Origin: a virus
Reading direction: 5' to 3' (one strand)
IMG/VR virus record: IMGVR_UViG_3300031576_000108
Location: 1-44,328 of that record
Length of the DNA stretch: 44,328 nucleotides
Shown here: positions 6,826-39,402 of the stretch, one piece after another
How the letters are laid out: each line of letters starts with the position of its first letter
How positions within the stretch are numbered: the first letter of the stretch is position 1
Notes under the pieces: generated by a model
What the model saw: the letters and a program-made list of their open reading frames with translations, nothing else
What the model was told of the DNA's origin: nothing
Databases searched by the model: none
Program-made: the position numbers and the translations under genes

Positions 6826-6851
6826 AGTAGTAGGCACGCTCCGCGTGCCGT
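6826..6851 (+). repeat. family A palindromic repeat
   Basis: AGTAGTAGGCACGCTCCGCGTGCCGT; GGCACGC and GCGTGCC pair around TCC. It sits in the short gap between converging operons. Confidence 0.9.
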
Positions 6852-6860
6852 CGTCCGGGC

Positions 6861-6890
6861 GAGCCGCCGGTGCTTGTCCCGGCGGCTTTT
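6861..6890. terminator. family B palindrome acting as a terminator between converging operons
   Basis: GAGCCGCCGG and CCGGCGGCTTTT pair around TGCTTGTC and are followed by TTTT, a textbook intrinsic terminator for the plus-strand terminase block. The T-run contains the stop codon (complement of TTA, 6889-6891) of the converging minus-strand gene, so the repeat has been fitted to both transcripts. Confidence 0.7.
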
Positions 6891-8406
6891 AGCAGACTGG
6901 CACAAAGTCGTAATTCCCCGAAAAGAGGGTGGCGTTGCAATCCTCCATGAGTGCTGTGGCGATGAGCCCGTTGGGCTTCCAAGTCAAACTGCTTACACCG
7001 CCGGTCCCGGCACCCAACTCAACCTGAATCTCGAACATCAGGCTTGTAGCGTCGAGAAACAGTGCAGCGTCCACGTCAAAATCAACTGGGCTGTTCAGTA
7101 TGGCAGTTGCTCCGGTCACGATGAGACTGCCATCCGAGGAGCTGAAAACGATGCTCGGAAATGGCCCCTCCTCGACCAGAACTGAAACTGTGCGTTGTCC
7201 AACCAACATACCGTTCACAAAGAACTTTACGGTAGCACTCTGTGTACTGGGCAATGCCGGGTAGTCGTTGCCAGGCCCCGACGGTGTGGTGCATGAGATG
7301 CGCAGCTGAATCACCACCGCCCCGACCAATCGCACCGATTCTGTCTGGTAGCCGAAGAACGATAATTCGTACCAATGGCGCAGCTTCTTCTTCCAAGGCA
7401 ACCCGCTGATCCCGGCGTCGAAGCCGAATTTGTTCTTCACCCAGTTCTCTCGGTACAGCACCCGGCCATCAAAGGGGAATCCTGCAAACTGAGCTCCAAT
7501 CGCGCTATTGGCTACCACTAGGCTGCCTGGTTGCTCGTTCAAACCAGGACGCGGATCAAAGATGAAGTCCTGCAGGATCGTTTCTCCATCTCGCCAGTAG
7601 TTTTTCACGAATCCCTTCTGCGATTGTCGCCACGGCATGTATCCGGTTTCCAGATAGAACTCGTGCATGATCTGGAGGTCGGGCGGGTAGAGCGGTGAGT
7701 TTGGCGTCGTACCGTGGTTGAACTGCATGATCTCGAACAGGTTGGTGTTCTGATCGTTGCCTGGCGAGATTTTTGTCGAGGGGTCCAAGTACCAGGGCCG
7801 GCCGAGCGGGTGAGCGCCGTCCGTCTTCCAGTTCCACAAATCGCTTGCTATGCGATCGTTGACGAAGGGGCTTTCGGGCCAACCACCAGAATGTGCGAAC
7901 TTCGTTGTGGTTCTACTCGCTGGCTGCGGGTTGCCGATGAAATCCAACCCCATTGGGTGCCTCGCTCCATGCACCCAACCCTCCAAGCCTGGCCCATTCG
8001 GCGGGTCTTCCCACAGCTCGGCCGATACCAAATCCGCCGCCGCGCGCATCTGTGCCAAGAGGTCTTCGAAATAGAACCAGTGAGCGCCTTCCCGCGATGG
8101 CCCGAACGGCCGGAAGAACTGCTCCAACACCAGGGGCACTGGTGTGGTCAGCAGGTCGAAGACGTAGCCCAGTTCGTCGGGTTCTGTGATGAGCTGATAG
8201 GGTTCCTGGGTCACTCGGTCGCGTAATATGAACTCTGGCGGCGACCCGCCCAGCCACCGCTGCAAGGCGTTCAGCCGGTAGCAGGCCATCGCTATGTCTG
8301 CGACTCGGTTGAGGCCGAACGCCATTTTGCGGAAGCGAGCTGATGTCGAAGTGAATTCGAAAATGACGGGCATGCCAGAGTTTTTGAACAGCCAAACGCA
8401 AGGCAT
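6889..8406 (-). CDS. putative tail-tip/virion protein (505 aa)
   Basis: Last gene of the virion operon. A 505-residue protein beginning MPCVWLFKNSGMPVIFEF; the N-terminal half is mixed helix/strand with many aromatic residues, the C-terminal third is beta-rich with a repeating strand-turn pattern (ESVRLVGAVVIQLRI, ATVKFFVNGMLVGQRTVSV, LMFEIQVELG) like a carbohydrate-binding or receptor-binding jelly roll. No signal peptide. It starts three bases after the stop of the preceding gene, so it is co-translated. A role in host contact is inferred from position at the distal end of the tail genes and the beta-rich C-terminus. Confidence 0.6.
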   Translation of the reverse strand: MPCVWLFKNSGMPVIFEFTSTSARFRKMAFGLNRVADIAMACYRLNALQRWLGGSPPEFILRDRVTQEPYQLITEPDELGYVFDLLTTPVPLVLEQFFRPFGPSREGAHWFYFEDLLAQMRAAADLVSAELWEDPPNGPGLEGWVHGARHPMGLDFIGNPQPASRTTTKFAHSGGWPESPFVNDRIASDLWNWKTDGAHPLGRPWYLDPSTKISPGNDQNTNLFEIMQFNHGTTPNSPLYPPDLQIMHEFYLETGYMPWRQSQKGFVKNYWRDGETILQDFIFDPRPGLNEQPGSLVVANSAIGAQFAGFPFDGRVLYRENWVKNKFGFDAGISGLPWKKKLRHWYELSFFGYQTESVRLVGAVVIQLRISCTTPSGPGNDYPALPSTQSATVKFFVNGMLVGQRTVSVLVEEGPFPSIVFSSSDGSLIVTGATAILNSPVDFDVDAALFLDATSLMFEIQVELGAGTGGVSSLTWKPNGLIATALMEDCNATLFSGNYDFVPVC

Positions 8407-8409
8407 TTC

Positions 8410-8775
8410 CTAGAAACCCCTCGGTATAGATTCTGAAACCCAGATCGAGCCCGACTTGAAAACGGTCACCTCATCGCCAACCACCAGAAAAGGCGAGCCG
8501 CCGACGGCCTCGACCTTGTTCCAAAACTCGATTTCTTCCCCCAAACTTGCCGGTACCAACTCGCCGTTCAGGTTAACGGCATAGGTTCGAACAAACCCCG
8601 TGTACTTCTTTCGTCCGGACGTCGCTTGGTTTGTGACAACGACGTGTTTGAACTCAGAAGCGCTTGCTAGACTGGGTGCCCGCCGTCGTATGTTGACGGT
8701 CAGTTGCCCCTCGACTTCGATGAGCTTCTTCGCGTGCTGCCTGACAATCTGTTCCAAGTCGTCGAGCCTTGCCAT
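8410..8775 (-). CDS. putative tail protein with N-terminal coiled coil (121 aa)
   Basis: A 121-residue protein starting MARLDDLEQIVRQHAKKL, a short coiled coil, then a compact beta domain (YTGFVRTYAVNLNGEL, GDEVTVFKSGSIWV). The frame is open upstream through two copies of the family A repeat (GTRSVPTTE), but the ATG at 8775 has TGAGG in front, partly supplied by the repeat edge, and is preferred. Coiled-coil plus beta domain suits a small trimeric tail or fibre-attachment protein; inference only. Confidence 0.6.
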   Translation of the reverse strand: MARLDDLEQIVRQHAKKLIEVEGQLTVNIRRRAPSLASASEFKHVVVTNQATSGRKKYTGFVRTYAVNLNGELVPASLGEEIEFWNKVEAVGGSPFLVVGDEVTVFKSGSIWVSESIPRGF

Positions 8776-8784
8776 CTGTTCCTC

Positions 8785-8887
8785 AGTAGTAGGCACACTC
8801 CGTGTGCCGTCCTCAGTAGTAGGCACACTCCGTGTGCCGTTTGGATCTGCGGCTACCTCCCACGGCACACGGAGTGTGCCTACTACT
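8785..8887. repeat. cluster of three family A repeats, one inverted
   Basis: Direct copies at 8785-8810 and 8815-8840 (AGTAGTAGGCACACTCCGTGTGCCGT would be one copy) and an inverted copy at 8862-8887. Together they can form a large cruciform in the gap between two tail genes; the inverted copy abuts the stop of the gene at 8888. Confidence 0.9.
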
Positions 8888-10987
8888 TCAAAACACCTGC
8901 GCGGCTTCTTCCATCGACCAGTACCCTGTGCGCAAGGACGTCACCACCTGCCCTTCTCGGAACACGTTCCGCCTCTCGGTGACGACTGCAAATACCGGCT
9001 CCGCGACGTTTATCCCGATAACGCCGGTCACCATCGAGCCGATCGGCGCGAACGACCCGACCATGTTGATTGGTATCTCGATCGCCTGCCGCTCGACCGA
9101 CGCAAAGTAGACGACCACGGGCGCGAACGCCCTCAACCGATCGGTCGTGTCCTCGACGATGAGGTTGTCGCCGTGGATCCGCTCCAAGGTGGCGTCGTCG
9201 TCCTTGATGCTGGTTACCGTTCCGGGCGCGCAGTACCGAAACTTGACCCCGCGGATCTCGATTGTCTTCTTGCGTTCGGCGTCGAGGTTTGCCGCGGCGT
9301 TGCGCCTGAGCACGACGTGCGGATGCTGGTCGGTCTTGAACGCCGCGGTGACGATTACATCCCGCCAATCGACGCCGGTTGTCTCGGGGTCGAACTTGGA
9401 GTCGGTGTGCGGGTCCCAGTTCCCGCGCGCGAGTGCGTGGTTCGGGTTCCCGTCCAGTTCGACGCCGAAGGCGGCGTCGAGCGATCGCACGTTGCACGGT
9501 GCGAGTGCCGCCTGGCTTAGCTTCTCGATGTGTGCCCACCGATCTGGATCCGCCGCCTGCGCCTTCGGCAGCTTGACGAATGCGATTAATGGCAGGAACT
9601 CCTCATCTTTATCGGGTATGTCCGGGTCGATCTTGAGGACCTGGCCGTCTACGACGGAGGGTGGCTCGTGGTACTCGCGGTTCTCGCGCAGAAACGTGTC
9701 CGGCATGAACCGCTTCTCACCGCTCCAGTAACCCGCCGGCGACTGGTCCGCCGTGTCGATGGTCCCGTCCTCGCGCGGCTTTAGCGCGGTGTTGGTTTTC
9801 TCCCCGCCCTCGCCGTCGCCGACTTTCTGATCCCAGCCCGGTACGACGATGAAATGTCGGAAGACGTCCCGGTACTTGTCCTTCGAGCGGGCCAGGTCGT
9901 TCTTGGTGGCGTCACCCTCATCGACGTTGGCGTACTCGTCCTGGCGATCGAGGCTCCAGCGCCGCGTAAAGTTCTCGTCCTCGAACGACCAGCTCCCCAT
10001 GAGCTCGATCGGGTCGGCGCCGCGGATCTCGTAGGTGTCGTACTGGCTGCTGGTCGATTGCCGAAAATCGACTGCGTCAATGAGTCCGGTGTACGGCCAC
10101 TCGGTGGGCAGGATGAGTGGCTGTTGCCAGGCGTTGGCCGGCAGTGTGTAGCTGCCGAAGCTGACTGGCCGGTCGGCCAGAGAGAAAATCTCCAGCAGCG
10201 TGATCGTCGTTGCGGTCGCCTGCATGTGCATCCCAAGTCCGCGCCGCCGATCGACCAGCCGGTTCATCGCCTCCCACGCGCTCGATCCTTTCAGGTCGTT
10301 GACCTCGATCAGGTCGTCGAGCACTTCGAACTGTCCGAAGAGCCACAATGGGATGTTGTTCGGGCCGAACCAGCACTCGACATATTCAAGCGCGTTCAGG
10401 TTCGACCAGGGGTTGTTCTCGTTCTCGCTCGAAAAGACATAACTGGATCTGCCGTTGGCCGGGTTGGTGAACTTGGAGCTCGACCGATTCCCGCGCGGCA
10501 CTGTCCCGCGGATCGGTGACAGGTTGAACGTCGGCACGCGGTGAATCTCGCGGGCCTGGCCGCTCTCCTCGGCGATCGCATGGTCGATGTAGACGCGGTC
10601 CCACAGGTGTGGTAGCCCGTAAGCCTGGACCGTCTGGGTGCCCGACAACCTGGTCGAGCTCATCAGCCGGTTGAGCGGGTCCTGGAAGAGGCCCGTCCAG
10701 AGGATCCCAGGCGCAAAGCCTGGGTACTGAAACCGAATCTGCGCGTACAGATTGGTGAACCGCAGGGGAAAAATCTGTGTAAGTGCCGAGTGATGGGGCC
10801 ACTGGATGCGGCCGAACTGAAAGATGAACGTGGCGTCGGGCATATCTGGGCCGGCCACGTCGCGGCATTCGTCGGCGTCGAGCAGCGGGAAGAACGTCCA
10901 GGGCGCGGACCAGCTCGCTTTCAGAAACGTGTACACGCGCGCCCTCGGCTGCGCCGTCCCCGAACTACTCGACTTAACGCTCGGCAT
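8888..10987 (-). CDS. putative tail hub/tip structural protein (699 aa)
   Basis: A 699-residue protein beginning MPSVKSSSSGTAQPRARV. It is rich in Trp, Tyr and Pro in the first 300 residues, then strongly acidic (DEYANVDEGDATKNDLA), and ends with a barrel-like region (VKFRYCAPGTVTSIKDDDA, VITGVIGINVAEP-type strands). Position after the tape measure and before the fibre-like genes, and its size, suggest the tail hub or a tip protein. I recognise no defined domain. GCAAGGA precedes the ATG closely. No enzyme motif was found. Confidence 0.6.
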   Translation of the reverse strand: MPSVKSSSSGTAQPRARVYTFLKASWSAPWTFFPLLDADECRDVAGPDMPDATFIFQFGRIQWPHHSALTQIFPLRFTNLYAQIRFQYPGFAPGILWTGLFQDPLNRLMSSTRLSGTQTVQAYGLPHLWDRVYIDHAIAEESGQAREIHRVPTFNLSPIRGTVPRGNRSSSKFTNPANGRSSYVFSSENENNPWSNLNALEYVECWFGPNNIPLWLFGQFEVLDDLIEVNDLKGSSAWEAMNRLVDRRRGLGMHMQATATTITLLEIFSLADRPVSFGSYTLPANAWQQPLILPTEWPYTGLIDAVDFRQSTSSQYDTYEIRGADPIELMGSWSFEDENFTRRWSLDRQDEYANVDEGDATKNDLARSKDKYRDVFRHFIVVPGWDQKVGDGEGGEKTNTALKPREDGTIDTADQSPAGYWSGEKRFMPDTFLRENREYHEPPSVVDGQVLKIDPDIPDKDEEFLPLIAFVKLPKAQAADPDRWAHIEKLSQAALAPCNVRSLDAAFGVELDGNPNHALARGNWDPHTDSKFDPETTGVDWRDVIVTAAFKTDQHPHVVLRRNAAANLDAERKKTIEIRGVKFRYCAPGTVTSIKDDDATLERIHGDNLIVEDTTDRLRAFAPVVVYFASVERQAIEIPINMVGSFAPIGSMVTGVIGINVAEPVFAVVTERRNVFREGQVVTSLRTGYWSMEEAAQVF

Positions 10988-11001: not shown

Positions 11002-11026
11002 GTAGTAGGCACGCTCCGCGTGCCGT
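11002..11026 (+). repeat. family A palindromic repeat
   Basis: One copy (GC variant: GGCACGCTCCGCGTGCC) in the 90-base gap between two tail genes, just upstream of the minus-strand start at 10987. Confidence 0.9.
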
Positions 11027-15092: not shown

Positions 15093-15130
15093 GTAGTAGG
15101 CACACTCCGTGTGCCGTTTTTCCGTGTGCC
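15093..15130 (+). repeat. family A repeat plus a half copy
   Basis: Full copy 15093-15117 followed by TCCGTGTGCCGT at 15119-15130, a partial tandem duplication. Confidence 0.85.
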
Positions 15131-15961: not shown

Positions 15962-16012
15962 AGTAGTAGGCACACTCCGTGTGCCGTCGTGTGCCGTCGT
16001 GTGCCGTCGTTC
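15962..16012 (+). repeat. family A repeat with tandem GTGCCGTC units
   Basis: AGTAGTAGGCACACTCCGTG is followed by GTGCCGTC repeated three times, a local slippage expansion of the right half of the palindrome. Confidence 0.85.
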
Positions 16013-18586: not shown

Positions 18587-18612
18587 AGTAGCAGGCACAC
18601 TCCGTGTGCCGT
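18587..18612 (+). repeat. family A palindromic repeat
   Basis: AGTAGCAGGCACACTCCGTG and on; it touches the stop codon of the tape-measure gene and precedes the start of the next minus gene by 15 bases. Confidence 0.85.
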
Positions 18613-20732
18613 TATCTGTGTGCGTTTCTGTCCAACGTTCTTCTCCGGCTGATATCGACCAACACCCCGAGCGTCTTCCGCTGCACGTCGAGCGAATCCT
18701 TGAACAGCTTTTCCAGGTCGCTGAGGTCGAGCCCGGGTGCGACGTTGCCCGACTGGTTGGGCACGAACACCTCGGGGCCGGCCTCGCCGACCATATAGGC
18801 GTCCCCGGCCGCGACCGGTCCGCCTCGACGTCGGGCCGGCAGGTCGAGCAGGCCGCCGCCAGGCCCCAGCTTCTCCTCACCGATCTGGATTTCCAGCCGC
18901 TTGATTCGTCGTTCGATCAGGTCGATTTCGGGTTGTCGTTCGGCTTTGATTTTGTTGATAGCCCCCTTGTCTGTCACACCGTCGAGGGCCTCGTCGCGCC
19001 AGAGCTCCAGCTTTTGCTTAACAATCGTGAGCCGCTTCCGCTCGACTTCCGCAGGCGAGTCGGCTTTACCGGCCCTTGCCTGTTCCTTTGCCTTCTCTTT
19101 CTCTTCCTTCTGTCTCTGGAGTTGCTCGAAGATCGTCTCGAAGTCGGTACCGGGTGTCCGTTCTCGTCGTCCCTGCAGGGGTGTAGCTGGCTCGATGAGA
19201 TCCGAGACGTCGGCGGCGGCCCGGCCGGCGCCGGCTGCCTCTGCCCGGTCGGCCTGCATCCGTTCGAGTGCCTTGCGGATGATCTGCTTTGCGGTCGTGT
19301 CGATACCAAGCATTGGCTGGCCGGCCCGACCCAGGAAGTCCTCGGCCGCCCCGCGGGGCATCTGCCCGAGGCCCTGGGCCAGGCCGGGCACCTGGGCGCC
19401 GATGACCGGTATCTCGAACCCGAAGAGCTGTTTCTCCAGCGACATTTTTCCGAAGTCGCCGACGCCGGCCTCGGCGGCGGCGGCCGCGATCTCCTGCTTG
19501 AACCGATCGACGTCGAACCGCTTGGCGCCCTGCTCCGCCTCGGCGGTTTGCCGTCGCGCCTCGGCCGCGTTCTTTTGTGCTTCGGGTGTGGTGCGGGCCA
19601 GCCCCTGGGCGGCGCCGATCTGCTGGACGCCGGTCCCTTGCGCGCCGAGCAGCTGCTGGGCGAGCGGCAGGTCGAGCATGAGTGCCTCGAGCGCCGCTGC
19701 AATGTCCGGCTTGCCGCCGGTGAGCTGCCGCAGGAAGTCGGCCCGTACCGCGTCCGACTTCCCCTCCAGGCCCTTTTGCAGGTTCTCCAGCGCGGTGAAA
19801 AGATCGACCTTCGCCAGGTCAACGGTCTCCGGGTCGATACCCACGATGGCGAATGCCTCGCGTTTCTTCTCGTTGGTCGCCGCCTTATTCAGCGTCCTAG
19901 CCGCCTTCGTCAGCTGCTCGACGGATCCGCCGCGCTCCTCGCGGAGAGCACCCGCGACGATCCCCTGTTCGGGCGACACGCCGAGCGACTGGAGGGCCTC
20001 GATCTGTCCCTTGATGCCACCGAGCGATACGCCCCCGAGTCCGGCGCTCTGGAGTGCCCGGATCTGGCCGGCGATCCCGGTGATGTTCTCTGCTGAGAGG
20101 TCCCGGCCGGTTGCCCCGAGGAAGTCGATGATCTCCTTGCCGAAGTCGGCCCGACCGAGACCTTGGCCGGCCCCGACGGCGGCCCCGAGCGGCCCGGCCA
20201 TCTTGTCCGACTTGATCCCTTCGCCGGCGAGTTGGGCGGCCAGGCCCCCGACCGTCTCCCGCCCGGCTCCGGTGCGGGCCATGACGCCGGTGATCGCTTT
20301 CGTGAGTTCGGGGCTCCGCTCGAGCGCCGCAATTTCCGCCGCTGCGGCCAGCTGGCGAACCTCTTTCGATGCGGCGATCGACTTCTCTCGGAACTTGTCC
20401 AGGTCCTCCAGGATCTTGGCGAAGCTGATGCCGGCGATCGCCCCCTTGATCATGTTGAAAGCGCTTTCGCCGGTCTTGCCCGTCTCCTCCTGCTTCTTCC
20501 GGAGGCTCTCCGTCTCCTGTTCGAGTTTCTTCGTGTCGGCCGCGACGCGGCGCAGGATGTCGGCCTCTTTCGCCTTGGCCTGCTGCCACTCCTTTGACCC
20601 CTTGTCAGCCGTTTCGAGTGTCTGCTTAATCTGGCGCAGCAGCTCACGGTCGGCCTCGACCACCTGGCGGTACGCCTGGATAGCGCCCGAGGTATCGCCG
20701 TCCCACACCAGTTTCTCGTGCGTTACACCCAT
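18612..20732 (-). CDS. tail tape measure protein
   Basis: About 706 residues from the ATG at 20732 (MGVTHEKLVWDGDTSG); the longer in-frame start lies in repeat DNA. A long helical N-terminus with coiled coil (residues about 20-110: LLRQIKQTLETADKGSK, KKLEQETESLRKKQEE), an Ala/Gly-rich middle, and near the C-terminus RRGGPVAAGDAYMVGEAG followed by PEVFVP, a signature of phage tape measure proteins. At the usual 1.5 angstroms per residue the tail would be near 100 nm. The protein sets tail length and is threaded through the tube. It follows the chaperone and tube genes in the normal order. Confidence 0.85.
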   Translation of the reverse strand: MGVTHEKLVWDGDTSGAIQAYRQVVEADRELLRQIKQTLETADKGSKEWQQAKAKEADILRRVAADTKKLEQETESLRKKQEETGKTGESAFNMIKGAIAGISFAKILEDLDKFREKSIAASKEVRQLAAAAEIAALERSPELTKAITGVMARTGAGRETVGGLAAQLAGEGIKSDKMAGPLGAAVGAGQGLGRADFGKEIIDFLGATGRDLSAENITGIAGQIRALQSAGLGGVSLGGIKGQIEALQSLGVSPEQGIVAGALREERGGSVEQLTKAARTLNKAATNEKKREAFAIVGIDPETVDLAKVDLFTALENLQKGLEGKSDAVRADFLRQLTGGKPDIAAALEALMLDLPLAQQLLGAQGTGVQQIGAAQGLARTTPEAQKNAAEARRQTAEAEQGAKRFDVDRFKQEIAAAAAEAGVGDFGKMSLEKQLFGFEIPVIGAQVPGLAQGLGQMPRGAAEDFLGRAGQPMLGIDTTAKQIIRKALERMQADRAEAAGAGRAAADVSDLIEPATPLQGRRERTPGTDFETIFEQLQRQKEEKEKAKEQARAGKADSPAEVERKRLTIVKQKLELWRDEALDGVTDKGAINKIKAERQPEIDLIERRIKRLEIQIGEEKLGPGGGLLDLPARRRGGPVAAGDAYMVGEAGPEVFVPNQSGNVAPGLDLSDLEKLFKDSLDVQRKTLGVLVDISRRRTLDRNAHR

Positions 20733-23166: not shown

Positions 23167-23286
23167 GTAGTAGGCACGCTCCGTCGTGCCGTGGTCGTAG
23201 TAGGCACGCTCCGTCGTGCCGTGGTCGTATGTAGGCACGCTCCGTCGTGCCGTTCCTGCCAACGGCACACGGAGTGTGCCTACTAC
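23167..23286. repeat. cluster of four family A repeats
   Basis: Three direct copies of the GTCGTGCC variant (23167-23192, 23197-23222, 23227-23253) and one inverted copy of the common type (23262-23286), which abuts the stop of the gene at 23289. The densest array in the window. Confidence 0.9.
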
Positions 23287-23563: not shown

Positions 23564-23589
23564 GTAGTAGGCACGCTCCGTCGTGCCGT
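23564..23589 (+). repeat. family A palindromic repeat
   Basis: GTAGTAGGCACGCTCCGTCG variant; next to the stop codon of the tail tube gene at 23594. Confidence 0.9.
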
Positions 23590-24571: not shown

Positions 24572-24633
24572 TAGTAGTAGGCACGCTCCGCGTGCCGTCA
24601 CGGCAAACACGGCACACGGAGTGTGCCTACTAC
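24572..24633. repeat. inverted pair of family A repeats
   Basis: Direct copy 24572-24598 and inverted copy 24609-24633 between two minus genes, able to pair with each other. Confidence 0.9.
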
Positions 24634-25125: not shown

Positions 25126-25151
25126 AGTAGTAGGCACACTCCGTGTGCCGT
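25126..25151 (+). repeat. family A palindromic repeat
   Basis: One copy immediately before the ATG at 25125 on the minus strand. Confidence 0.9.
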
Positions 25152-25591: not shown

Positions 25592-25650
25592 AGTAGTAGG
25601 CACGCTCCGCGTGCCGCCGCTTACAGTAGTAGGCAGGCTCCGCGTGCCGT
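25592..25650 (+). repeat. two family A repeats in tandem
   Basis: Copies at 25592-25616 and 25625-25650 (second with GGCAGGCTCC, one base off the palindrome). Confidence 0.85.
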
Positions 25651-26020: not shown

Positions 26021-26941
26021 TTAGTTGAACTCAGTTTGGACGCTCGTCCACCAGGCCAGGTATCCCATGTTATAGCGCGCATCGGCCATGAATTTCACGT
26101 TCTTGGTCTCGGCGTCGTCCCAGCCCTTGGTCTGGGTCGCGAGCGCGCGCCGCGGCTGATATACGAACGGTTTCAACGGGCTGCCCAGGAAGTGCAGCCA
26201 CCACTTGACCGCGCTGGTGAGCTCGTTGTTTACGATGATCACCGGCTGGTCGAGCACGATGTTCGTGTTGCCGCCGCCCAGCAGTGCGGATCGCAGCCCC
26301 TCATTGGCGGCGACCTCCAGCTCGGGCGGCACCTCGACCATCAGGTCGGCCAAGCGGCCGGCGATCGGCCGGATGAGCTTCTTGCCCTGATCGTTCTTGA
26401 AGGTCAACATTTTCGTGCGAGCCGCGTTGTAGGCGCTCTTGAACTCGGCGGCCGTGACTGCCAGGTGATTGGTGGCGTCGTACGTGAGATCGTTCGACTG
26501 TGTGCCGGAGTCGCCCCAAAGATGGTCCGTGTCGTAGAAGAACTGGCCATCCCACGTCGCTGTGGATTCGCCGGCGATGAGAATCTCGGTCCGCAATGCG
26601 TCGGGGTGGTACATGGCCTCGGACGCGAGCATCGCGATCGAGTCGCTGTACATGCCGAGCCGATCATCTTCGATGTCGGTTTTTTCGATCAGTATCGAGT
26701 CCTCCCAGAGCTTGTTGGCCAGGGTGAACTTGCCGCCGCGCATCTCTTTGAACACTCGCTCACCCAACCACTCCCGCATCGCAGGCATGGTTCCGAGAAA
26801 TGCGTATTCCTCATCAGCCCCGCCCGATGGTCGCACCGTGCACACGCGGGGATAGAAAGGCTGCGCACTCATGGCAGCCAGTTTGAAAGCCGCCGTCAGC
26901 CCGCGCGTCGTGACGATGGCCTTTGCTGTGTCGAGAGACAT
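26021..26941 (-). CDS. major capsid protein, Mu gpT-like
   Basis: 306 residues from ATG 26941 (MSLDTAKAIVTTRGLTAAF), AAGGAG eight bases upstream. The segment MREWLGERVFKEMRGGKFTL, then IEKTDIEDDRLGMYS and the DGQFFYDTDHLWGD motif, match the Mu head subunit gpT family of HK97-fold capsid proteins. HPDALRTEILIAG and the C-terminal WWTSVQTEFN also fit. It assembles the icosahedral shell. A Mu-like capsid with a lambda-like portal and protease shows the mosaic origin of the head module. Its neighbours on either side are the decoration and completion genes. Confidence 0.85.
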   Translation of the reverse strand: MSLDTAKAIVTTRGLTAAFKLAAMSAQPFYPRVCTVRPSGGADEEYAFLGTMPAMREWLGERVFKEMRGGKFTLANKLWEDSILIEKTDIEDDRLGMYSDSIAMLASEAMYHPDALRTEILIAGESTATWDGQFFYDTDHLWGDSGTQSNDLTYDATNHLAVTAAEFKSAYNAARTKMLTFKNDQGKKLIRPIAGRLADLMVEVPPELEVAANEGLRSALLGGGNTNIVLDQPVIIVNNELTSAVKWWLHFLGSPLKPFVYQPRRALATQTKGWDDAETKNVKFMADARYNMGYLAWWTSVQTEFN

Positions 26942-26966
26942 TTCCACTTCTCCTTGTTCCGGTTGT

Positions 26967-27453: not shown

Positions 27454-27506
27454 CCCGCCGGCCGGCGGGCTGTTTTGAAAAGTAGTAGGCACACTCCGTG
27501 TGCCGT
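27454..27506. repeat. 16-bp palindrome plus family A repeat
   Basis: CCCGCCGGCCGGCGGG (27454-27469) is a perfect palindrome; a family A copy follows at 27481-27506, ending eight bases from the stop of the protease/scaffold gene. Confidence 0.85.
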
Positions 27507-27513
27507 GCCCCGC

Positions 27514-28077
27514 TTACTTCTTTGGCGTTGGCGTTGCCTTCCCGAGCTGCGCCAGTACGTACTGATCTTCGGCGAGGCCCAGCTGCTGGAACGTCTCGGC
27601 GTTGTCGCGGTACTCCTTGCGCAGCTTGGCCTCGGCCGCTTCACCTTCCGGCGCTTCGGAGTGTTCGACTGGCTTCTGTGTGGAGGCCAGCTTATCGAAG
27701 TAGGCGGCTTTGGCCCCCTCGATGGAAACCCCGTCGCCGATCAGTTTGGCTGCCAGCTTGGTATCGCCGTAGCGATCGCCCAGGGCCTGGATCTCGGCGC
27801 ATCGGATCCTTTCGGATTCGACCGAGCCAGCTGCTGCAGCAGCTGCAGCTGCTGGGGCCTCCGTTTTCGCCGGCTCTGCGACTCCACAGTGCCCGGTGAG
27901 GGTGGGCATCCTGATGGCGCCCATCAGCTTTTCGAACTGTTCCTGGCTCAACGTAACCGGCGATGCGGTCGGTTGAGTCTGCGGCACCGGTGCAGCCGCG
28001 GCGGCGGCCGGTGCGGTCGCCGGAGCGGTCGGCGTCGCGGGGCTTTGTCCTCCGGATGCCGTTGCGGCATTGGCCAT
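27514..28077 (-). CDS. nested scaffold protein (Nu3-like, 187 aa)
   Basis: ATG at 28077, in frame with codon 320 of the protease, is preceded by AGAAGAGGAGAGTCAC, a far better ribosome site than that of the full gene. The product, MANAATASGGQSPATPT onward, has an Ala/Pro-rich start and a helical, charged C-terminus (EAEAKLRKEYRDNAETFQQL), as in lambda Nu3. It would guide shell assembly and be removed by the protease. In other phages the pair shares the same C-terminus in this way. Confidence 0.65.
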   Translation of the reverse strand: MANAATASGGQSPATPTAPATAPAAAAAAPVPQTQPTASPVTLSQEQFEKLMGAIRMPTLTGHCGVAEPAKTEAPAAAAAAAAGSVESERIRCAEIQALGDRYGDTKLAAKLIGDGVSIEGAKAAYFDKLASTQKPVEHSEAPEGEAAEAKLRKEYRDNAETFQQLGLAEDQYVLAQLGKATPTPKK

Positions 28078-29034
28078 GTGACTCTCCTCTTCTGGTGTTT
28101 CTAATTCGTCCTCGACTGGCTCCGGCTCGGGGACGATGACAGAGACCGGATTCTTCTTCGCTCGCTCCCGGAGTTCTGCGAGCGTGTCCGTATAGGTTCC
28201 TAAGGAGTCGGCCAGACCAGCGTCCAATGCCTGCTGGCCGACGAATTCGCGGCCCTCCGCCCAACTTTCCGTGTCGGCGAGTGAGAGTCCGCGATTGTTT
28301 GCTACAGCGTTCAGGAACAGGCTGTTGTAGTAGTCGATGTACGACTGGATGACCGTCTTATCACTCTTGTCGAGCGGTTTGTCCGGGTGCCCGGCCGTCT
28401 TGTACTTCCCCGCCTGGATGAACGTCACTTTCTCGCCCAGCATCTCCCTCTGTCGCGAGTAGTCCACGTGCACCCAGTAGGTGCCGATGGCCCCGAGCTC
28501 CGAATCGCTGCTGAGAATGATTCGCTCGGCGGCGGAACCGAGGTAGTAACAGGCGCTGTAGGCCACGCTATCGGCAATCGACCAAATCTCTTTCACGGCT
28601 CGCCCGGCGACGATCAGGTCCGAGCACTCGGCCAGGCCGCCGCCGGACGCTCCGCCGGGTGAGTGGCAGCGCAGCAGGACCTTCTTCACGCGATCATCGG
28701 CAAGCACTTCGCGGATGCAGTGGCCCAGCACCTCGTAGCTGGTGCCACCGGAGTAGTAACTCATCAGGTTCGCCCGGCGGGTGAGCGTCCCGGTGATCGG
28801 AATAACGGCGACGCCGTCGATGATCTCGTACCGCTTGGCCTTCTCGCTCGACGCCCCCTCGTACTGGGCCTTCACCTTTTCCGGGTCGATCTGGTCCGCC
28901 AGTTTCGCCTGGAGAAACTCCTGGATCTCCTGCAGCTTGGCTAGCCGCATGTGCCAGGCGGTGCCGTAGAACGTCTCAGCAACCAGCTTGAGCCGTTCCC
29001 GTCCGCGTCGTTGTGCTACGTGAGCGTTCGCCAT
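27514..29034 (-). CDS. prohead protease (S49/SppA type) with fused scaffold
   Basis: 506 residues. Residues 70-300 are an S49 serine peptidase domain: GVAVIPITGTL opens the fold, HSPGGASGGGL forms the oxyanion glycines, AYSACYYLG carries the likely nucleophile Ser160, and AGKYKTAGHP the likely base Lys212. As with lambda gpC it would cleave head proteins during maturation. After a linker rich in Pro/Glu (PEPEPVEDELETPEEE) comes an Ala/Pro-rich, then helical C-terminus typical of scaffolds. An internal start at 28077 would make that part alone. No strong ribosome site at 29034. Confidence 0.8.
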   Translation of the reverse strand: MANAHVAQRRGRERLKLVAETFYGTAWHMRLAKLQEIQEFLQAKLADQIDPEKVKAQYEGASSEKAKRYEIIDGVAVIPITGTLTRRANLMSYYSGGTSYEVLGHCIREVLADDRVKKVLLRCHSPGGASGGGLAECSDLIVAGRAVKEIWSIADSVAYSACYYLGSAAERIILSSDSELGAIGTYWVHVDYSRQREMLGEKVTFIQAGKYKTAGHPDKPLDKSDKTVIQSYIDYYNSLFLNAVANNRGLSLADTESWAEGREFVGQQALDAGLADSLGTYTDTLAELRERAKKNPVSVIVPEPEPVEDELETPEEESHMANAATASGGQSPATPTAPATAPAAAAAAPVPQTQPTASPVTLSQEQFEKLMGAIRMPTLTGHCGVAEPAKTEAPAAAAAAAAGSVESERIRCAEIQALGDRYGDTKLAAKLIGDGVSIEGAKAAYFDKLASTQKPVEHSEAPEGEAAEAKLRKEYRDNAETFQQLGLAEDQYVLAQLGKATPTPKK

Positions 29035-29045: not shown

Positions 29046-29117
29046 GTAGTAGGCACACTCCGTGTGCCGTTCTGTCCCGTTCTCCCCCGTTCACGGCACA
29101 CGGAGTGTGCCTACTAC
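29046..29117. repeat. inverted pair of family A repeats
   Basis: Direct copy 29046-29070 and inverted copy 29093-29117 between portal and protease genes. Confidence 0.9.
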
Positions 29118-29121: not shown

Positions 29122-30894
29122 CTACGCCGCCCGGTGTCCGTTTCTGCTGAACCGCCGCACGTTCACCAGCTTGACCGGCTTCCGCTGTTCCGTGTCTTCG
29201 TCTTCATCCTGATCCATGCCATCGGGGCTCTTGGGCGCCGATGGGACCCCGCTTACGGCCTTTGTGCTACGTCCTCGCACCAGGCCGTTCTCGGTATACC
29301 ACTCCTCGACGCGGAGGTTCTGTTCCGCGACCTCCTGCCAATCGAGGCCGTTCTCGGCACACACGTTGGGAAGCGAGTTGAATCCCGCCTCGACCTCCAA
29401 CATGGACGCCTGGACTTCCTTCAGGGGATCGACCCACGGATTTGGCGGCGGCGCCCACCAGCACTTTTCAAACGCGAACCGGTTGGCGTTGTACTCCCGC
29501 ATGCTGAGCGGGATCAGATCCGCGGTGATCGAGTCGGCGACGATCTCTCGCCACACGGGCTGCAGGAACCTCTCCACCATGATGATCTGGTCGAGCTGGA
29601 AGTTTCGGCGCGCGTCGAGCAGTGCCAGCCGTGTCGAGCTGAAGTTACTTTTGCTCCAGTCGCCGGCGAGCAGCTCGTAGCCGTAGCCGATCGCGTTGCC
29701 GATCAATCGGCACAGCCACACCAGGAACGGGTCAAACGTGTCGTTAGCCGGCTGCGGGTTGCCGAACTCCACGGATTCGCCCGGGTTCAAATAATAGGCG
29801 CGCCCGTGGTCGAGATCCTCGATCGGGTCGTTCGTCTCCGGCTCCGTGTCCGACGCATTGGCGAGTGCCGCGCCCATCGCGTCGCCGGTCAATGTGATGA
29901 AGACGGAGAAGCAGCTGGCGATGTCGAGATTCTCGAGCCATCCGTCCAGCCAATCGTCCAGCGTCTGCAGCTTGAGGATGACCGGTGCCAGCTCGGGCAC
30001 GCCCCTCGATCGCCTCCGCCTTCGGCGGTACAGGTGGAACACGTCGCCGGCCGGCAGCCGCCGCATGTCGAAGCCGCCGCGAACGTCCTTGATGTCGTCC
30101 GGGTGCGTCCGACTCACGAAATATCCTAGGATGCGTCCGAGCTCATCGCGTTCGATGCCAGCTCGGACGCGCGGGTCGTTCATTCGTTCGAGTGGGGTGA
30201 AGAGCCGCTCGGGCGCGATCGTCTGTAGCTTGAGCGGGATGGGGGCCTGCGGGTCCGGGATCCGCGACTTGAGCGCGATGCCTTCGCCCGATTCGAACCT
30301 GTCCCAGGCCGCCTCGCCCTGCAGCTCGCCGAACGACAGTTTGCCCGACACCTCCGCGCGCGGCGCCCATTCCGCAAAAATCTGTTCGAGGGACCGGTTA
30401 ATGTCCTTCGCGCGCGAGTCGGTGACCAGGCCGTCCTCGGCGGTGATCCGGGCCTGCGGGCGCATGCCTGGTCCGACGGTGTAGGTGACCCACTTCCGAG
30501 CCGCCGCCGCGGCCAGCGCGTTGTTGTCGATCATGTGCTGGCTCTTCTGCCGCATCACGTCGAGCGACTCACCGAAGTCAAAGTCGTCGTCGTCGGTCAG
30601 TCCGGATGTTTTCCACCGGTCGTGATGCCGCCTATCGTAGTTGGCGGCCTCGAATTTACTGGCCGCCCCCTCGATGCGTGCCTCCTGGAGTGGCCACATG
30701 CGTCGCTCGATCTGGCGGGCTTTTCCCCACTTGGGGCTAACTGCGTAGGCGAACCAATCGACGAGTCGAGCCGCGCGCGAGGCTGTGGATGGGAACTTAC
30801 GGAGCTGTCCCTTGTCGTCCTTCAGGTCGATTCTGACCGGCGCCAGTCGGCGGTTCGAAGGTCGCCGGTATTTCCGCTCAGCAATTTTAGGCAA
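29122..30894 (-). CDS. portal protein, lambda gpB family
   Basis: About 590 residues. The frame has no ATG near its start; a TTG at 30894 (LPKIAERKYRRPSNRR), nine bases after AGAGAGG, is chosen, while a GTG 11 codons earlier lies in a repeat. WVTYTVGPGMRPQARI, EGIALKSRIPDPQAPIPLKL, and GYFVSRTHPDD are characteristic of lambda-family portals; FHLYRRRRRRSRGVPELAPV carries the basic channel region. Acidic end (DGMDQDEDEDTEQRKP). Twelve copies form the DNA entry ring that docks terminase. Upstream is the gpW-like gene, downstream the protease, as in lambda. Confidence 0.8.
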   Translation of the reverse strand: MPKIAERKYRRPSNRRLAPVRIDLKDDKGQLRKFPSTASRAARLVDWFAYAVSPKWGKARQIERRMWPLQEARIEGAASKFEAANYDRRHHDRWKTSGLTDDDDFDFGESLDVMRQKSQHMIDNNALAAAAARKWVTYTVGPGMRPQARITAEDGLVTDSRAKDINRSLEQIFAEWAPRAEVSGKLSFGELQGEAAWDRFESGEGIALKSRIPDPQAPIPLKLQTIAPERLFTPLERMNDPRVRAGIERDELGRILGYFVSRTHPDDIKDVRGGFDMRRLPAGDVFHLYRRRRRRSRGVPELAPVILKLQTLDDWLDGWLENLDIASCFSVFITLTGDAMGAALANASDTEPETNDPIEDLDHGRAYYLNPGESVEFGNPQPANDTFDPFLVWLCRLIGNAIGYGYELLAGDWSKSNFSSTRLALLDARRNFQLDQIIMVERFLQPVWREIVADSITADLIPLSMREYNANRFAFEKCWWAPPPNPWVDPLKEVQASMLEVEAGFNSLPNVCAENGLDWQEVAEQNLRVEEWYTENGLVRGRSTKAVSGVPSAPKSPDGMDQDEDEDTEQRKPVKLVNVRRFSRNGHRAA

Positions 30895-30913: not shown

Positions 30914-30939
30914 AGTAGTAGGCACACTCCGTGTGCCGT
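30914..30939 (+). repeat. family A palindromic repeat
   Basis: One copy filling the whole gap between the gpW-like stop and the portal leader. Confidence 0.9.
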
Positions 30940-31137
30940 TTACCGTGCCACTCTGAGTTTCGTGAACGCCGGCCTGCGAGCTGCATTCCTCGAATCGACC
31001 CAATCCTGGAACTCTTTCAGGTGGGTGAGGTCACGCTCGATGACGACGCCGTCAACGTCGTATTTCTCGCCGGTTTCGAGCGTGTCGAGAATAGCGTCGC
31101 GAGCGGCGTCTGACAGTTGTTGGTCAGTGGCGGGCAT
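30940..31137 (-). CDS. gpW-like head-tail connector (65 aa)
   Basis: First gene of the virion operon, 65 residues (MPATDQQLSDAARDAILD). Helix, short hairpin with a basic loop (GEKYDVDGVVIERDLTHL), second helix and basic tail fit lambda gpW, which sits directly before the portal gene and joins head to tail. Weak ribosome site. The stop abuts a family A repeat. Confidence 0.65.
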   Translation of the reverse strand: MPATDQQLSDAARDAILDTLETGEKYDVDGVVIERDLTHLKEFQDWVDSRNAARRPAFTKLRVAR

Positions 31138-32046: not shown

Positions 32047-32181
32047 TTGCGTTTCTCACGCCGTTGGCCATGCGTTTGCCTCTTGGTCGCGTCGCTGTTG
32101 CAGCTTGCCGGCGGCATCCTGATCTTCGGCACTGCGGCGGCCATCTACTTCAAGGTCGTCCAGATCCTCAGCACGTTGTAG
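32047..32181 (+). CDS. small membrane peptide, holin-like (44 aa)
   Basis: TTG start at 32047, eight bases after CGGAGG. 44 residues: basic N-terminus (LRFSRRWPCV) then one hydrophobic segment of about 30 residues (LVASLLQLAGGILIFGTA, AAIYF), ending ILSTL. The size, N-in charge and place between spanin-like lipoproteins and probable envelope enzymes suggest a single-span holin or pinholin. The stop TAG is the first three bases of a family A repeat. Too short for firm assignment. Confidence 0.5.
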   Translation: MRFSRRWPCVCLLVASLLQLAGGILIFGTAAAIYFKVVQILSTL

Positions 32182-32202
32182 CAGGCACACTCCGTGTGCC
32201 GT
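32178..32202 (+). repeat. family A repeat supplying a stop codon
   Basis: GTAGCAGGCACACTCCGTGT; its TAG ends the holin-like ORF. Confidence 0.85.
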
Positions 32203-33839: not shown

Positions 33840-35606
33840 ATGCGGAACAGAGAACGCCGCCGCCCAAAAACCTTCGAACAGCTCGAACGTCGCCAATGCC
33901 TGTCTTGTCCCGGCCTGGTCACTCCTCACGACACTATCCCTGACTTCGGTTGCGACCCGACGATCGAGAGCCTTCGATCCGGCCGATGGGGCGATCCAAC
34001 GACCTGGTCGCTCGACCGCGTGCCGACATCCGACGACGTGGTGCTAGTTTCGAGCGGTACGGCGGTGGTGATTGAGGGTGAGAACTTTGGAGGCACGGCC
34101 TACGCGAATGTAGTAGCGATCTCCGGCGATTTGCGGTTCGATCCGAACACAGAGTTGCGCGTGACGACGGTGCTTGTCTACGTAGGGGGCCAACTGAAGA
34201 TAGGCACGTCGAGCCAACCCATCGTTGGCCACGCCGAGATTGTGTTTCGTGACGCGCCGCTCGATTTGGCGGCGGACCCTGGCCAGTTCGGACACGGTTT
34301 GATCGTGCTCGGTTCGATCGACATTCACGGCCAACCACAAACCGACACATTCGTGCGACTCGCCGAGGCCCCGGCCGCGGGCTCGTCTGTCATCCATCTC
34401 TCGGTTCCGGTCGCCTGGTCCGTTGGCAGCGAGATCGTGCTGCCTGATTCTCGCCAGGTGCGAACTGGCCCGGCCGATGCGTCCTTGAGGACGTGGCCGG
34501 GCAGCCAAACCGAGACGCGGCGGATCGCGGCGGTCGACGGACTCGATATCATCCTTGACCAACCGCTCAGCTACAGCCATCCGGGCAATGGTAACCACCA
34601 GTCGCACGTTGGCTTGCTCAGCCGTTCGGTAGTGCTGCGTTCTGAGAATCCGAATGGTGTCCGCGGGCACACCATGTACGTCGATCGCGTTCTGGCGGAC
34701 ATAGAGTACGCCGAGTTTCGCGACTTGGGACGGACCATGGCAATGGTTCCGCTCGACGCGGCGACCAACCACATCGGCCGCTACCCACTGCACATGCACC
34801 ATGTGTACGGTGATCCAGCCGGCGACGAGAGCGGCTATCAGTTTCGCGTGGTCGGCAACTCAATCGTCGGCTCTCCAAAGTGGGGGGTTACTATCCACGA
34901 CTCGCACTTCGGCCTGGTCGCCGACAACGTCTTGCTGCGTGCTTTGGGCTCCGGCGTGATGACGGAGGACGGATCCGAATCCTACAACGTCATCGACCAC
35001 AATTTCGCGATCGACTCTTTCGGGTCAGGTCAGGCCCTTTACAAGCGTTCCCCGATCGGCGACTTCGGATACGAGGGCACCGGCTTCTGGTTCCGCGGCA
35101 CCAATAACTATGTGCGCAACAATGTTGCTGCGGCCTCGAGCACCAGTCTGTATGTCTACGCTGTGATCGACGTCGGCGTAGACGACGGGGAACCTGACAC
35201 GCGCTACCCGATCTTCCCTGGTGCCAGCACTGTGATCGCCGGCGAGTTTGTAACCGTCAATCCGAACGCCCAGGGCATACTGGAGTTTGCGAACAATGAG
35301 GGGTACGGAGGCGCGTTCAGCTCTGGACTGCATCTGTGGGAAGTGGGCGCCGCGCAGAAGATTGGCGGGGAGCAGATCCATTTCTACGACGGGCCGGCCA
35401 GCGTCGTCTCCTCGCTCACCCTCTGGAACATGGGCGGAAAAATTGGGGTTGAGCTCCGCTGGTCCGCTCACATCCTCGTGAGCGGCCTGGTATTCCATCA
35501 GCAGCCGACTACTAAGTTGAGTCAGGTTGCGGTCGGGGCTCTGCGGCCGACGCTCGACGCGATGAGTGTCGATTCTGATCTGCTGTATGTTTTACCCGGT
35601 CTGTGA
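33840..35606 (+). CDS. G8-like beta-helix surface protein (588 aa)
   Basis: 588 residues. The N-terminus RPKTFEQLERRQCLS is the short motif found at the start of many exported planctomycete proteins. Residues about 45-140 resemble a G8 domain: GRWGDPTTWSLDRVPTSDD, then VVLVSSGTAVVIEG and GDLRFDPNTELRVTTVLVYV with GGQLKIGT. From residue 230 a right-handed beta helix follows (NHIGRYPLHMHHVYGD, NSIVGSPKWGVTIHDS, NYVRNNVAAASS). G8/beta-helix proteins bind or cut polysaccharides. It could be a tailspike-like enzyme or a lysogenic conversion protein taken from the host. GGAGG precedes the ATG. Confidence 0.7.
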   Translation: MRNRERRRPKTFEQLERRQCLSCPGLVTPHDTIPDFGCDPTIESLRSGRWGDPTTWSLDRVPTSDDVVLVSSGTAVVIEGENFGGTAYANVVAISGDLRFDPNTELRVTTVLVYVGGQLKIGTSSQPIVGHAEIVFRDAPLDLAADPGQFGHGLIVLGSIDIHGQPQTDTFVRLAEAPAAGSSVIHLSVPVAWSVGSEIVLPDSRQVRTGPADASLRTWPGSQTETRRIAAVDGLDIILDQPLSYSHPGNGNHQSHVGLLSRSVVLRSENPNGVRGHTMYVDRVLADIEYAEFRDLGRTMAMVPLDAATNHIGRYPLHMHHVYGDPAGDESGYQFRVVGNSIVGSPKWGVTIHDSHFGLVADNVLLRALGSGVMTEDGSESYNVIDHNFAIDSFGSGQALYKRSPIGDFGYEGTGFWFRGTNNYVRNNVAAASSTSLYVYAVIDVGVDDGEPDTRYPIFPGASTVIAGEFVTVNPNAQGILEFANNEGYGGAFSSGLHLWEVGAAQKIGGEQIHFYDGPASVVSSLTLWNMGGKIGVELRWSAHILVSGLVFHQQPTTKLSQVAVGALRPTLDAMSVDSDLLYVLPGL

Positions 35607-35620: not shown

Positions 35621-35713
35621 CGAGCCGCCGGGCTTCTTTCAGCCTGCACAAAATGCTGTTTTTGCCGTAGTATTTAGCGGTCTCTGTTGTAGTAGGCACA
35701 CTCCGTGTGCCGT
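35621..35713 (+). repeat. half family B repeat and a family A repeat
   Basis: GAGCCGCCGGGCTT (35622-35635) has lost its right arm; a full family A copy is at 35689-35713. Between them TTTTTGCCGTAGTATTTAG may hold a weak promoter for the genes from 35738. Confidence 0.7.
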
Positions 35714-38534: not shown

Positions 38535-38572
38535 TGGTCTGTGCCAGTCCCTTACTCATAACCATTGGTTTC

Positions 38573-38619
38573 CTCTCTCGCTCTCTTAGTAGTTTTTCAA
38601 AACTAAGAGAGAGAGAGAG
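38573..38619. terminator. 18-bp stem hairpin upstream of the zinc-ribbon gene
   Basis: CTCTCTCGCTCTCTTAGT (38573-38590) pairs with ACTAAGAGAGAGAGAGAG (38602-38619), one mismatch, loop AGTTTTTCAAA. The stretch to csrA (38620-38813) contains no convincing gene; it holds a T8 run on the minus strand (38749-38756) that may terminate csrA transcription. Confidence 0.6.
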
Positions 38620-38813
38620 CCGACGGAGAACAACGCAACGCGCGCAGTTGCACTTATGGGGTTGGCTGAAAGCCATTCCCAACCGGGCGGGTGCCACCAA
38701 GTACGAGGTCTCCCGCCGGGGCCTCTTCTTTTCCGGTACGAAAAAAAACACCAGGCCAGCCTTGCTTCGCCGCTCAGTCCCGGTCAGGGGCCGGGCTGCT
38801 AGCTTCCCTGCCG

Positions 38814-39011
38814 TTAGGACGCAGCGATCCCGCTGGCCCGGTGGTCATTTTGCTGCTCCCGATTCAAAAGTTCCCCTCGACAGATCCGTATACCAGCCGG
38901 GGCTTGGACCCCAACTTTCACTTTGCCGCCTCGCAGTTTCTGAATAGTGATCTCGACGTCGAGGTCAGGCAGTACAACGGTCTCTCCGCGTTTCCTGGTC
39001 AGCACCAGCAT
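38814..39011 (-). CDS. csrA: carbon storage regulator CsrA
   Basis: 65 residues from ATG 39011 (ATGGAG six bases upstream), MLVLTRKRGETVVLPDLD, the invariant start of the CsrA/RsmA family, followed by VEITIQKLRGGKVKVGVQAP and IRICRGELL with the RNA-binding arginines. CsrA dimers bind GGA motifs in mRNA leaders and block translation. Many leaders here contain GGA in hairpin loops or stems. Phage-borne copies could redirect host metabolism or time phage translation. It is near full family length (about 60) with a short extra tail. Confidence 0.9.
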   Translation of the reverse strand: MLVLTRKRGETVVLPDLDVEITIQKLRGGKVKVGVQAPAGIRICRGELLNREQQNDHRASGIAAS

Positions 39012-39039
39012 TTTAGGCTCCATCCTTGTGGAGTTTGTT

Positions 39040-39065
39040 GTAGTAGGCACGCTCCGCCGTGCCGT
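39040..39065 (+). repeat. family A palindromic repeat
   Basis: GTAGTAGGCACGCTCCGCCG variant in the leader of csrA. Confidence 0.85.
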
Positions 39066-39144
39066 CCGGGGCAGGCGTCCGGCGGGTGGAACCAAACCTC
39101 TTGAAGTCGGCTTCTCCTCAGCTCGCGGCAGTGATGCATACCCT

Positions 39145-39402
39145 TCACTCCTCTGTAGTAGGCACACTCCGTGTGCCGTGGATGGCACGCGGACAAGACA
39201 GAATCGCCTGGTCTGCGTCACATGCACCACATCGACCGGTTGCCAGGTTGATCGCCCCAGAGTCTTTGCAGACCGAGCATTCGCCATCGACCAGGTCGTC
39301 CAGCGAACGGATTCGCGGACGTGGAAAGCCAGTTGCATCCATCTTGCGAACGATGGCCTTGATGTCGTCTGGCAGGGTTGGATCGTCCAGCACGTCGCTC
39401 AT
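39145..39402 (-). CDS. small zinc-ribbon protein with repeat-derived tail (85 aa)
   Basis: 85 residues from ATG 39402 (AAAGGTGGGAGAAAA upstream), MSDVLDDPTLPDDIKAIV. C-S-V-C ... C-G-A-C (residues about 42-61) form a zinc ribbon. The last ten residues, GTRSVPTTEE, are the translation of a family A repeat, so the repeat has extended or replaced the C-terminus. Function unknown; in one cluster with csrA and the ParB-like gene. Confidence 0.6.
   Translation of the reverse strand: MSDVLDDPTLPDDIKAIVRKMDATGFPRPRIRSLDDLVDGECSVCKDSGAINLATGRCGACDADQAILSCPRAIHGTRSVPTTEE
39155..39179 (+). repeat. family A repeat inside a coding end
   Basis: GTAGTAGGCACACTCCGTGT lies within the 3' end of the zinc-ribbon gene and encodes its last residues. 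Confidence 0.9.

What the first reader, a model, noticed from the sequence alone, without database searches (positions are those of the whole stretch)
6826..39179. About 26 copies of one palindromic repeat (family A) placed at virion gene boundaries
GTAGTAGGCAC(A/G)CTCCG(T/C)GTGCCGT occurs about 26 times, about 21 in the same orientation, nearly always between genes and almost never in the early block. Some copies are tandem (8785, 23167, 25592) or form inverted pairs (24572, 29046). They supply stop codons (32179), protein ends (39155) and parts of ribosome sites (8776). This density for a 44-kb phage suggests active spread, as for REP elements moved by a RAYT transposase of the host, or a function such as mRNA processing between genes of the long operon.
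Basis: partly seen in the sequence, partly recalled or inferred. Interest (0 to 1): 0.78.

Follow-up and report, generated by a model that had tools for sequence, protein, structure and literature searches.

The report
Host REP repeats swarming a phage genome
A virus of (probably) planctomycete bacteria carries 26 near-identical copies of a tiny hairpin repeat that belongs to the bacteria and flanks one of their 'domesticated' transposase genes, which suggests that this supposedly stay-at-home repeat was recently copied many times into a mobile virus genome.

Summary
Confirmed: 26 copies of a 25-nt repeat, GTAGTAGGCAC(A/G)CTCCG(T/C)GTGCCGT, lie at 6.8-39.2 kb of a 44-kb tailed-phage contig. 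25 of 26 are intergenic; 22 point one way, and the 4 reversed copies all sit in GTAG-outward inverted pairs. The repeat is a REP element: 5' GTAG foot plus a 7-bp hairpin. The identical 25-mer occurs in tens to about 180 copies per genome in many Planctomycetota and Poribacteria. In seven of those genomes it flanks, on both sides, one clade of REP-associated tyrosine transposase (RAYT/TnpA-REP), with HUH, Tyr and GTAG-contact residues conserved. No RAYT was found in the phage. About 80 related phage loci lack the repeats. At the portal-protease junction 59 relatives have a gap of -23 to +4 nt; this phage has 87 nt, filled by an inverted REP pair. No clearly decayed copies exist, so the expansion looks recent. 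Best reading: REPs, largely as single 25-nt units, were copied into phage DNA in trans by a host RAYT; selection kept those between genes. An RNA-level role is not excluded but is absent from relatives. REPs are known; a phage loaded with one per 1.7 kb is not reported in the literature I could search. Not shown: host, transposition itself, cause of the orientation bias.

The parts
6827..6851 (+). REP copy, G/C subtype, single
8786..8840 (+). two REP copies in direct tandem (8786-8810, 8816-8840), A/T subtype
8862..8886 (-). REP copy, inverted partner of 8816-8840 (21-nt spacer); ends 1 nt from the stop codon of gene 8888-10936(-)
11002..11026 (+). REP copy, G/C subtype, single
15093..15117 (+). 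REP copy, single, followed by a partial 3'-arm duplication at 15122
15963..15987 (+). REP copy, single, followed by partial 3'-arm duplications at 15988 and 15998
18588..18612 (+). REP copy, single (1 mismatch), abuts the stop codon of gene 18612-20732(-)
23167..23253 (+). three tandem REP copies of the CTCCGTCGTGCC insertion variant (23167, 23197, 23229)
23262..23286 (-). REP copy, inverted partner of 23229-23253 (8-nt spacer)
23564..23589 (+). REP copy, CTCCGTCGTGCC variant, single
24574..24598 (+). REP copy, G/C subtype, left member of an inverted pair (10-nt spacer)
24609..24633 (-). REP copy, A/T subtype, right member of the inverted pair
25127..25151 (+). REP copy, single
25593..25650 (+). 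two REP copies in direct tandem (25593, 25626), G/C subtype
27482..27506 (+). REP copy, single, between protease and decoration-like genes
29046..29070 (+). REP copy, left member of an inverted pair that fills the portal-protease junction
29093..29117 (-). REP copy, right member of that pair (22-nt spacer)
30915..30939 (+). REP copy, single, abuts the stop codon of gene call 30940-31137(-)
32178..32202 (+). REP copy, single (1 mismatch), among + strand genes
35689..35713 (+). REP copy, single, downstream of + strand gene 33840-35606
39040..39065 (+). REP copy, CTCCGCCGTGCC variant, single
39155..39179 (+). REP copy, single; the only one overlapping a (weak) gene call
26021..26947 (-). major head protein (Mu gpT-like); anchor used to find relatives
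27514..29034 (-). head maturation protease (peptidase S49)
29122..30894 (-). portal protein (lambda family); stop-to-protease gap 87 nt here, -23 to +4 nt in 59 relatives
4462..6483 (+). terminase large subunit (GpA type)

Best explanation
The repeats are GTAG-class REP elements of a bacterial REP/RAYT system, copied recently and repeatedly into this phage. In infected cells a host RAYT (an HUH single-strand transposase) recognises the hairpin in single-stranded DNA and joins 25-nt REP units into phage DNA, either from the chromosome or from copies already in the phage. Insertions that broke genes were lost, leaving copies in gene junctions of the late block. Shown: REP anatomy, identity with genomic REPs, a RAYT clade flanked by the same REP, recency, absence from relatives, an opened portal-protease junction. 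Inferred: that the RAYT does the copying, that it acts in trans on phage DNA, and that strand-specific (replication-coupled) insertion explains the uniform orientation.
For: Exact 25-mer in at least 117 stretches of Planctomycetota and Poribacteria genomes and 2-183 exact copies in each of 17 genomes checked. RAYT genes flanked on both sides by copies with 0-3 mismatches in Gemmataceae L223, Fimbriiglobus L225, Pirellulales L233, PLM2.Bin2 L235 and Poribacteria L184, L230, L231. Sister RAYTs are flanked by their own GTAG hairpin repeats. Best NCBIfam match of five of these proteins is REP_Tyr_transpos (58.6-71.5 bits, under its cut-off of 80); best PDB match of the clade is E. coli TnpA-REP 4er8; NHxH, WQ and YI..NP conserved. 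Inverted pairs all have GTAG outward: 62 of 62 in bacterial loci, 4 of 4 in the phage. Sharp 25-nt boundaries with unrelated flanks. No series of decayed copies. No copies in about 80 related loci nor in 8 whole related records and one prophage-bearing genome. Junction gap 87 nt against -23 to +4 nt in 59 relatives. A variant (CTCCGTCGTGCC) shared by four phage copies at two places and absent among bacterial copies in the fetched loci suggests copying within the phage.
Against: No transposition event was observed and no host was identified. No RAYT found in the phage. The published unit of movement is the REPIN pair, singlets being decaying remnants (PMC3116915, PMC8049555); here singlets dominate, and spacers of the inverted pairs match no bacterial spacer seen. 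CT cleavage dinucleotides known for TnpA-REP are not evident at the copy borders. In Poribacterium G004 orientation blocks exist (34 loci, 4 switches, no shuffle in 100,000 as ordered) but dnaA does not lie at a switch and GC skew is flat, so the replication link is unproven. The nearest relatives are only about 55% identical in the head protein, so true empty sites at base level are not available.
Confidence: 0.72

Rival explanations
1. The repeats are retained for a function in the late operon: as RNA hairpins between cistrons they set mRNA stability, processing or translation of virion genes, whatever their origin.
For: 25 of 26 are intergenic and all lie in the 6.8-39.2 kb region, none in the flanking early regions. 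Copies are near identical; the two stem subtypes are A..T or G..C, never mixed, in the phage. REPs are known to act on mRNA stability and translation in enterobacteria (reviews cited in PMC6006769).
Against: Relatives with the same head-gene order have none and no substitute repeat family; their portal-protease junction is overlapping or within 4 nt, so the insertion separated what is joined elsewhere. Two copies (32178, 35689) have the opposite sense relative to transcription. Tandems and inverted pairs look like insertion, not design. In bacteria the orientation relative to genes is mixed. Insertion plus purifying selection gives the same placement.
Confidence: 0.12
2. The contig is a long-resident prophage or chromosomal phage remnant that collected REPs at the rate of its host chromosome.
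For: REPs occur throughout such chromosomes; relatives' head genes occur in 7 of 392 Planctomycetota genomes, so prophages of this clade exist. Local clusters in Poribacterium G004 reach similar density (e.g. 9 copies in 6.5 kb at 2.516-2.523 Mb).
Against: One copy per 1.7 kb against one exact copy per about 32 kb in the densest genome checked; genes intact; no decayed copies; the contig ends share an 11-bp direct repeat that fits a complete phage genome with cohesive ends; no integrase among the genes tested.
Confidence: 0.1
3. Copies spread without a transposase, by hairpin-driven template switching or recombination during phage replication, from one captured REP.
For: Partial 3'-arm duplications next to 15093 and 15963, tandems with 30- and 33-nt periods, and a private insertion variant at two nearby places.
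Against: Does not explain the precise 25-nt unit with unrelated flanks, two subtypes both known from bacteria, or the shared GTAG-outward pair geometry. It may account for local tandems.
Confidence: 0.06

Closest known systems
GTAG-class REP sequences and REPINs (BIMEs) of bacterial chromosomes (PMC3733652, PMC3116915)
   Same: GTAG foot, short hairpin, intergenic, many near-identical copies, inverted pairs with GTAG outward, cognate RAYT flanked by the same repeat.
   Different: Located in a phage genome; mostly intact single units rather than pairs; density about 20 times the densest bacterial genome checked; singlets not decayed.
TnpA-REP / RAYT proteins, class 2 of the TnpA-Y1 family, subclass 2.5 (group 3) by features (PMC6006769, PMC8266576)
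   Same: NHxH, WQ, D-H-x2-R at the GTAG-contact positions, Y-I-x-x-N-P; short REPs with GTAG 1-2 nt from the stem.
   Different: Longer N-terminal part (about 120 residues before the core, with LPHW.Q...FRT.DS.P motif); scores below the NCBIfam cut-off and partly invisible to Pfam Y1_Tnp. Assignment to a subclass is by features only; no tree was made against the published classes.
IS200/IS605 single-strand transposons (IS608)
   Same: Same enzyme superfamily; strand-specific insertion could give uniform orientation.
   Different: No mobile gene is carried here; the unit is a 25-nt non-autonomous hairpin.
MITEs in phage genomes
   Same: Small non-autonomous repeat moved in trans.
   Different: No long terminal inverted repeats or target duplications; hairpin REP with GTAG guide.

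Membership tests
REP element (GTAG class) | 5' GTAG tetranucleotide beside a short hairpin | tested here: met
   GTAG-TA-7 bp stem-3 nt loop; folds as predicted, z about -3.8
REP element (GTAG class) | many copies, extragenic | tested here: met
   2-183 exact copies per genome; about 75% outside ORFs in fetched bacterial loci; 25 of 26 in the phage
REP element (GTAG class) | same repeat flanks a cognate RAYT gene | tested here: met
   L184, L223, L225, L230, L231, L233, L235
REP element (GTAG class) | cleavage and joining by the cognate RAYT | not testable with these tools
   needs a bench assay
REPIN | two inverted REPs with a conserved spacer as the unit of spread | tested here: not met
   in the phage only 4 inverted pairs, with unrelated spacers of 8-22 nt, and most loci are singlets; bacterial genomes do show pairs
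RAYT / TnpA-REP (for the bacterial protein) | HUH motif, catalytic Tyr in Y-x3-NP, W-Q and D/E-H-x2-R GTAG contacts | tested here: met
   motif definitions from PMC6006769
RAYT / TnpA-REP (for the bacterial protein) | score over the curated family cut-off | tested here: inconclusive
   NF047646 58.6-71.5 bits, cut-off 80, best family for all five
RAYT subclass 2.5 / group 3 | place in the published RAYT tree | not tested
   assigned by features only
IS200/IS605 insertion sequence | element carries its own transposase | tested here: not met
   25-nt units; RAYT-clade profile finds nothing among the window's genes

The most novel reading that the evidence does not exclude
A host RAYT copies single REPs, not only REPIN pairs, into replicating phage DNA at high rate and in one strand orientation, so phages act as vehicles that carry REP populations between hosts that share the RAYT; this would supply the horizontal route that current REPIN models regard as unlikely.
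Probability: 0.4. Interest if true: 0.82.

Novelty: new variant of a known kind. Interest (0 to 1): 0.66.

Why it matters
REPs are among the commonest bacterial repeats, yet how they spread is described as poorly understood, movement is thought to be very slow, singlets are taken for dead remnants, and copying onto a mobile replicon is considered unlikely (PMC3116915, PMC8266576, PMC8049555). A phage with 26 near-identical copies that relatives lack is a natural record of recent REP insertion, with intact single units. It offers a fast-replicating target in which RAYT-driven insertion, its strand bias and its unit could be tested directly.

Tried and rejected
Phage records: no DNA match to the first 25 kb, and none to two tandem copies in phages or plasmids. 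Portal protein alone found no relatives in viral contigs; the head-protein alignment did. Rfam: no family in the window. Transcription sense as the rule for orientation: mixed in bacteria (Poribacteria 25 sense, 11 antisense; Planctomycetota 2 and 7), so rejected as a general rule. Replication strand as the rule: orientation blocks in G004 are real but could not be tied to an origin; inconclusive. Identifying the host by spacer sequences of inverted pairs: no match. Looking for other phages with heavy REP loads: E. coli REP in 5 viral contigs, a sister planctomycete REP in 7, other sister REP in none, all with few copies. The first Y1_Tnp hits in the bacterial genomes were mostly IS200-like or other RAYTs without this repeat; only the A1 clade carries it, plus a looser neighbour at L137.

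Full report
Observation. The window is an IMG/VR virus record of 44,328 bases with terminase, portal, S49 protease and gpT-like head protein. The repeat is real: 21 copies by substitution search plus five with a one-base insertion in the distal arm, 26 in all; shuffles give none. On a simple codon-usage gene map of my own, 25 of 26 lie between genes where 16% of positions would (binomial 3e-19, which treats copies as independent). All lie between 6.8 and 39.2 kb. 22 are on the + strand; the four on the - strand are all right-hand members of inverted pairs with GTAG outward. Fourteen loci without an inverted partner are all +, which for a fair coin has a two-sided chance of about 1e-4 (own arithmetic).

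Anatomy. Each unit is GTAG-TA-GGCACAC-TCC-GTGTGCC-GT, or with G/C in place of A/T at the loop-closing pair; phage copies are 16 A..T and 4 G..C, never mixed. It folds as a single strand into a 7-bp hairpin. The borders are sharp: conservation falls to background outside the 25 nt. There is no tail of decayed copies.

Source. The exact 25-mer was found in 117 stretches of bacterial genomes before the scan hit its limit, the titled ones shown being Planctomycetota (Gemmataceae, Pirellulales, Schlesneria and others), Candidatus Poribacteria and one unnamed bacterium. In 17 of these genomes there are 2-183 exact copies. In the viral collection only one other contig has it, a single inverted pair.

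Transposase. All 17 genomes hold Y1 transposases, most unrelated to this repeat. One clade, about 220-260 aa, is linked to it: in Poribacterium L184 the gene has copies with 2 mismatches on the left and with 2 and 0 on the right. A profile of five members found further members, and those in L223, L225, L233, L235, L230 and L231 are flanked on both sides by the repeat with 0-3 mismatches. Other members of the clade are flanked by different GTAG hairpins, e.g. GTAGTCATCACGCTCCGCGTGATGTC and GTAGGATGGACATTCTTGTCCGTC, as expected of RAYTs each with its own REP. The proteins keep NHxH, WQ and YIxxNP; W-Q-x4-D-H-x2-R agrees with the GTAG-contact residues listed for subclasses 2.5 and 2.7 (PMC6006769). 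Their best named family is REP-associated tyrosine transposase, below cut-off, and the best solved relative is E. coli TnpA-REP 4er8. The profile finds nothing among the window's own genes.

Relatives. A head-protein alignment gave 157 related viral stretches, 80 kept, and matches in 7 of 392 Planctomycetota genomes, which makes a planctomycete host likely. In about 0.93 Mb of related loci no family-A repeat and no comparable multi-copy repeat exists; eight whole related records and a prophage-bearing genome also have none. The portal-to-protease junction is overlapping or within 4 nt in all 59 relatives that could be measured (-23 to +4 nt, median -11); here it is 87 nt, 72 of which are the inverted REP pair 29046-29117. 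This is the nearest thing to an empty site that the data offer.

How it most likely works. A REP/RAYT system of the host copied REP units into phage DNA. Because TnpA-REP enzymes act on single strands (PMC8266576, PMC6006769), insertion during phage replication would favour one strand; that fits the uniform orientation but is inference. In Poribacterium G004 REP loci fall into megabase blocks of one orientation (34 loci, 4 switches; none of 100,000 shuffles as ordered), yet dnaA is not at a switch and GC skew is flat, so replication strand was not shown. The insertion variant shared by four copies at 23.2 and 23.6 kb, absent among bacterial copies in the fetched loci, suggests copying within the phage too. 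Intergenic placement needs only purifying selection. Absence from both ends of the genome is unexplained; a modular exchange of the early region or selection could do it.

Known and new. REPs, REPINs and RAYTs are known, including in Planctomycetes (PMC3733652). In the held library no paper was found that describes REPs accumulating in a phage, a limited search. Modellers of REPINs regard copying through mobile replicons as unlikely and singlets as remnants (PMC8049555). A phage at one REP per 1.7 kb, mostly intact singlets, departs from both. The density is about 20-fold that of the densest bacterial genome checked by exact copies (183 in 5.8 Mb), though short stretches of G004 are as dense.

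Limits. Host unknown; all material is metagenomic; gene calls are my own; relatives are distant; the genome counts are of draft assemblies; transposition was not observed.

Noticed in passing
1-11 and 44318-44328: The contig ends share the 11-bp direct repeat CCTCTTTGAGA; it may be a complete genome with filled-in cohesive ends although the record is classed linear.
   Followed up: no
33840-35606: 588-aa protein with G8 and CEMIP beta-helix domains, perhaps a receptor-binding or sugar-degrading virion protein.
   Followed up: no
15117-15130 and 15987-16008: Partial duplications of the REP 3' arm directly after two copies, as if by slippage or nested insertion.
   Followed up: partly
Poribacterium G004 (OY282374), whole chromosome: REP loci lie in megabase-long blocks of one orientation with only four switches around the circle; not explained by dnaA position or GC skew.
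   Followed up: partly
L328-L335: Seven other viral contigs carry a few copies of a sister REP, GTAGYCATCACGCTCCGCGTGATG; several share two copies 2,334 bp apart.
   Followed up: partly
L004-L120: In the fetched bacterial loci no REP cluster fell between convergent genes while about ten fell between divergent ones; small sample, crude gene calls.
   Followed up: no
L223, L225: RAYTs of this clade that Pfam Y1_Tnp misses at E 0.001 but a clade profile finds at about 1e-90.
   Followed up: yes
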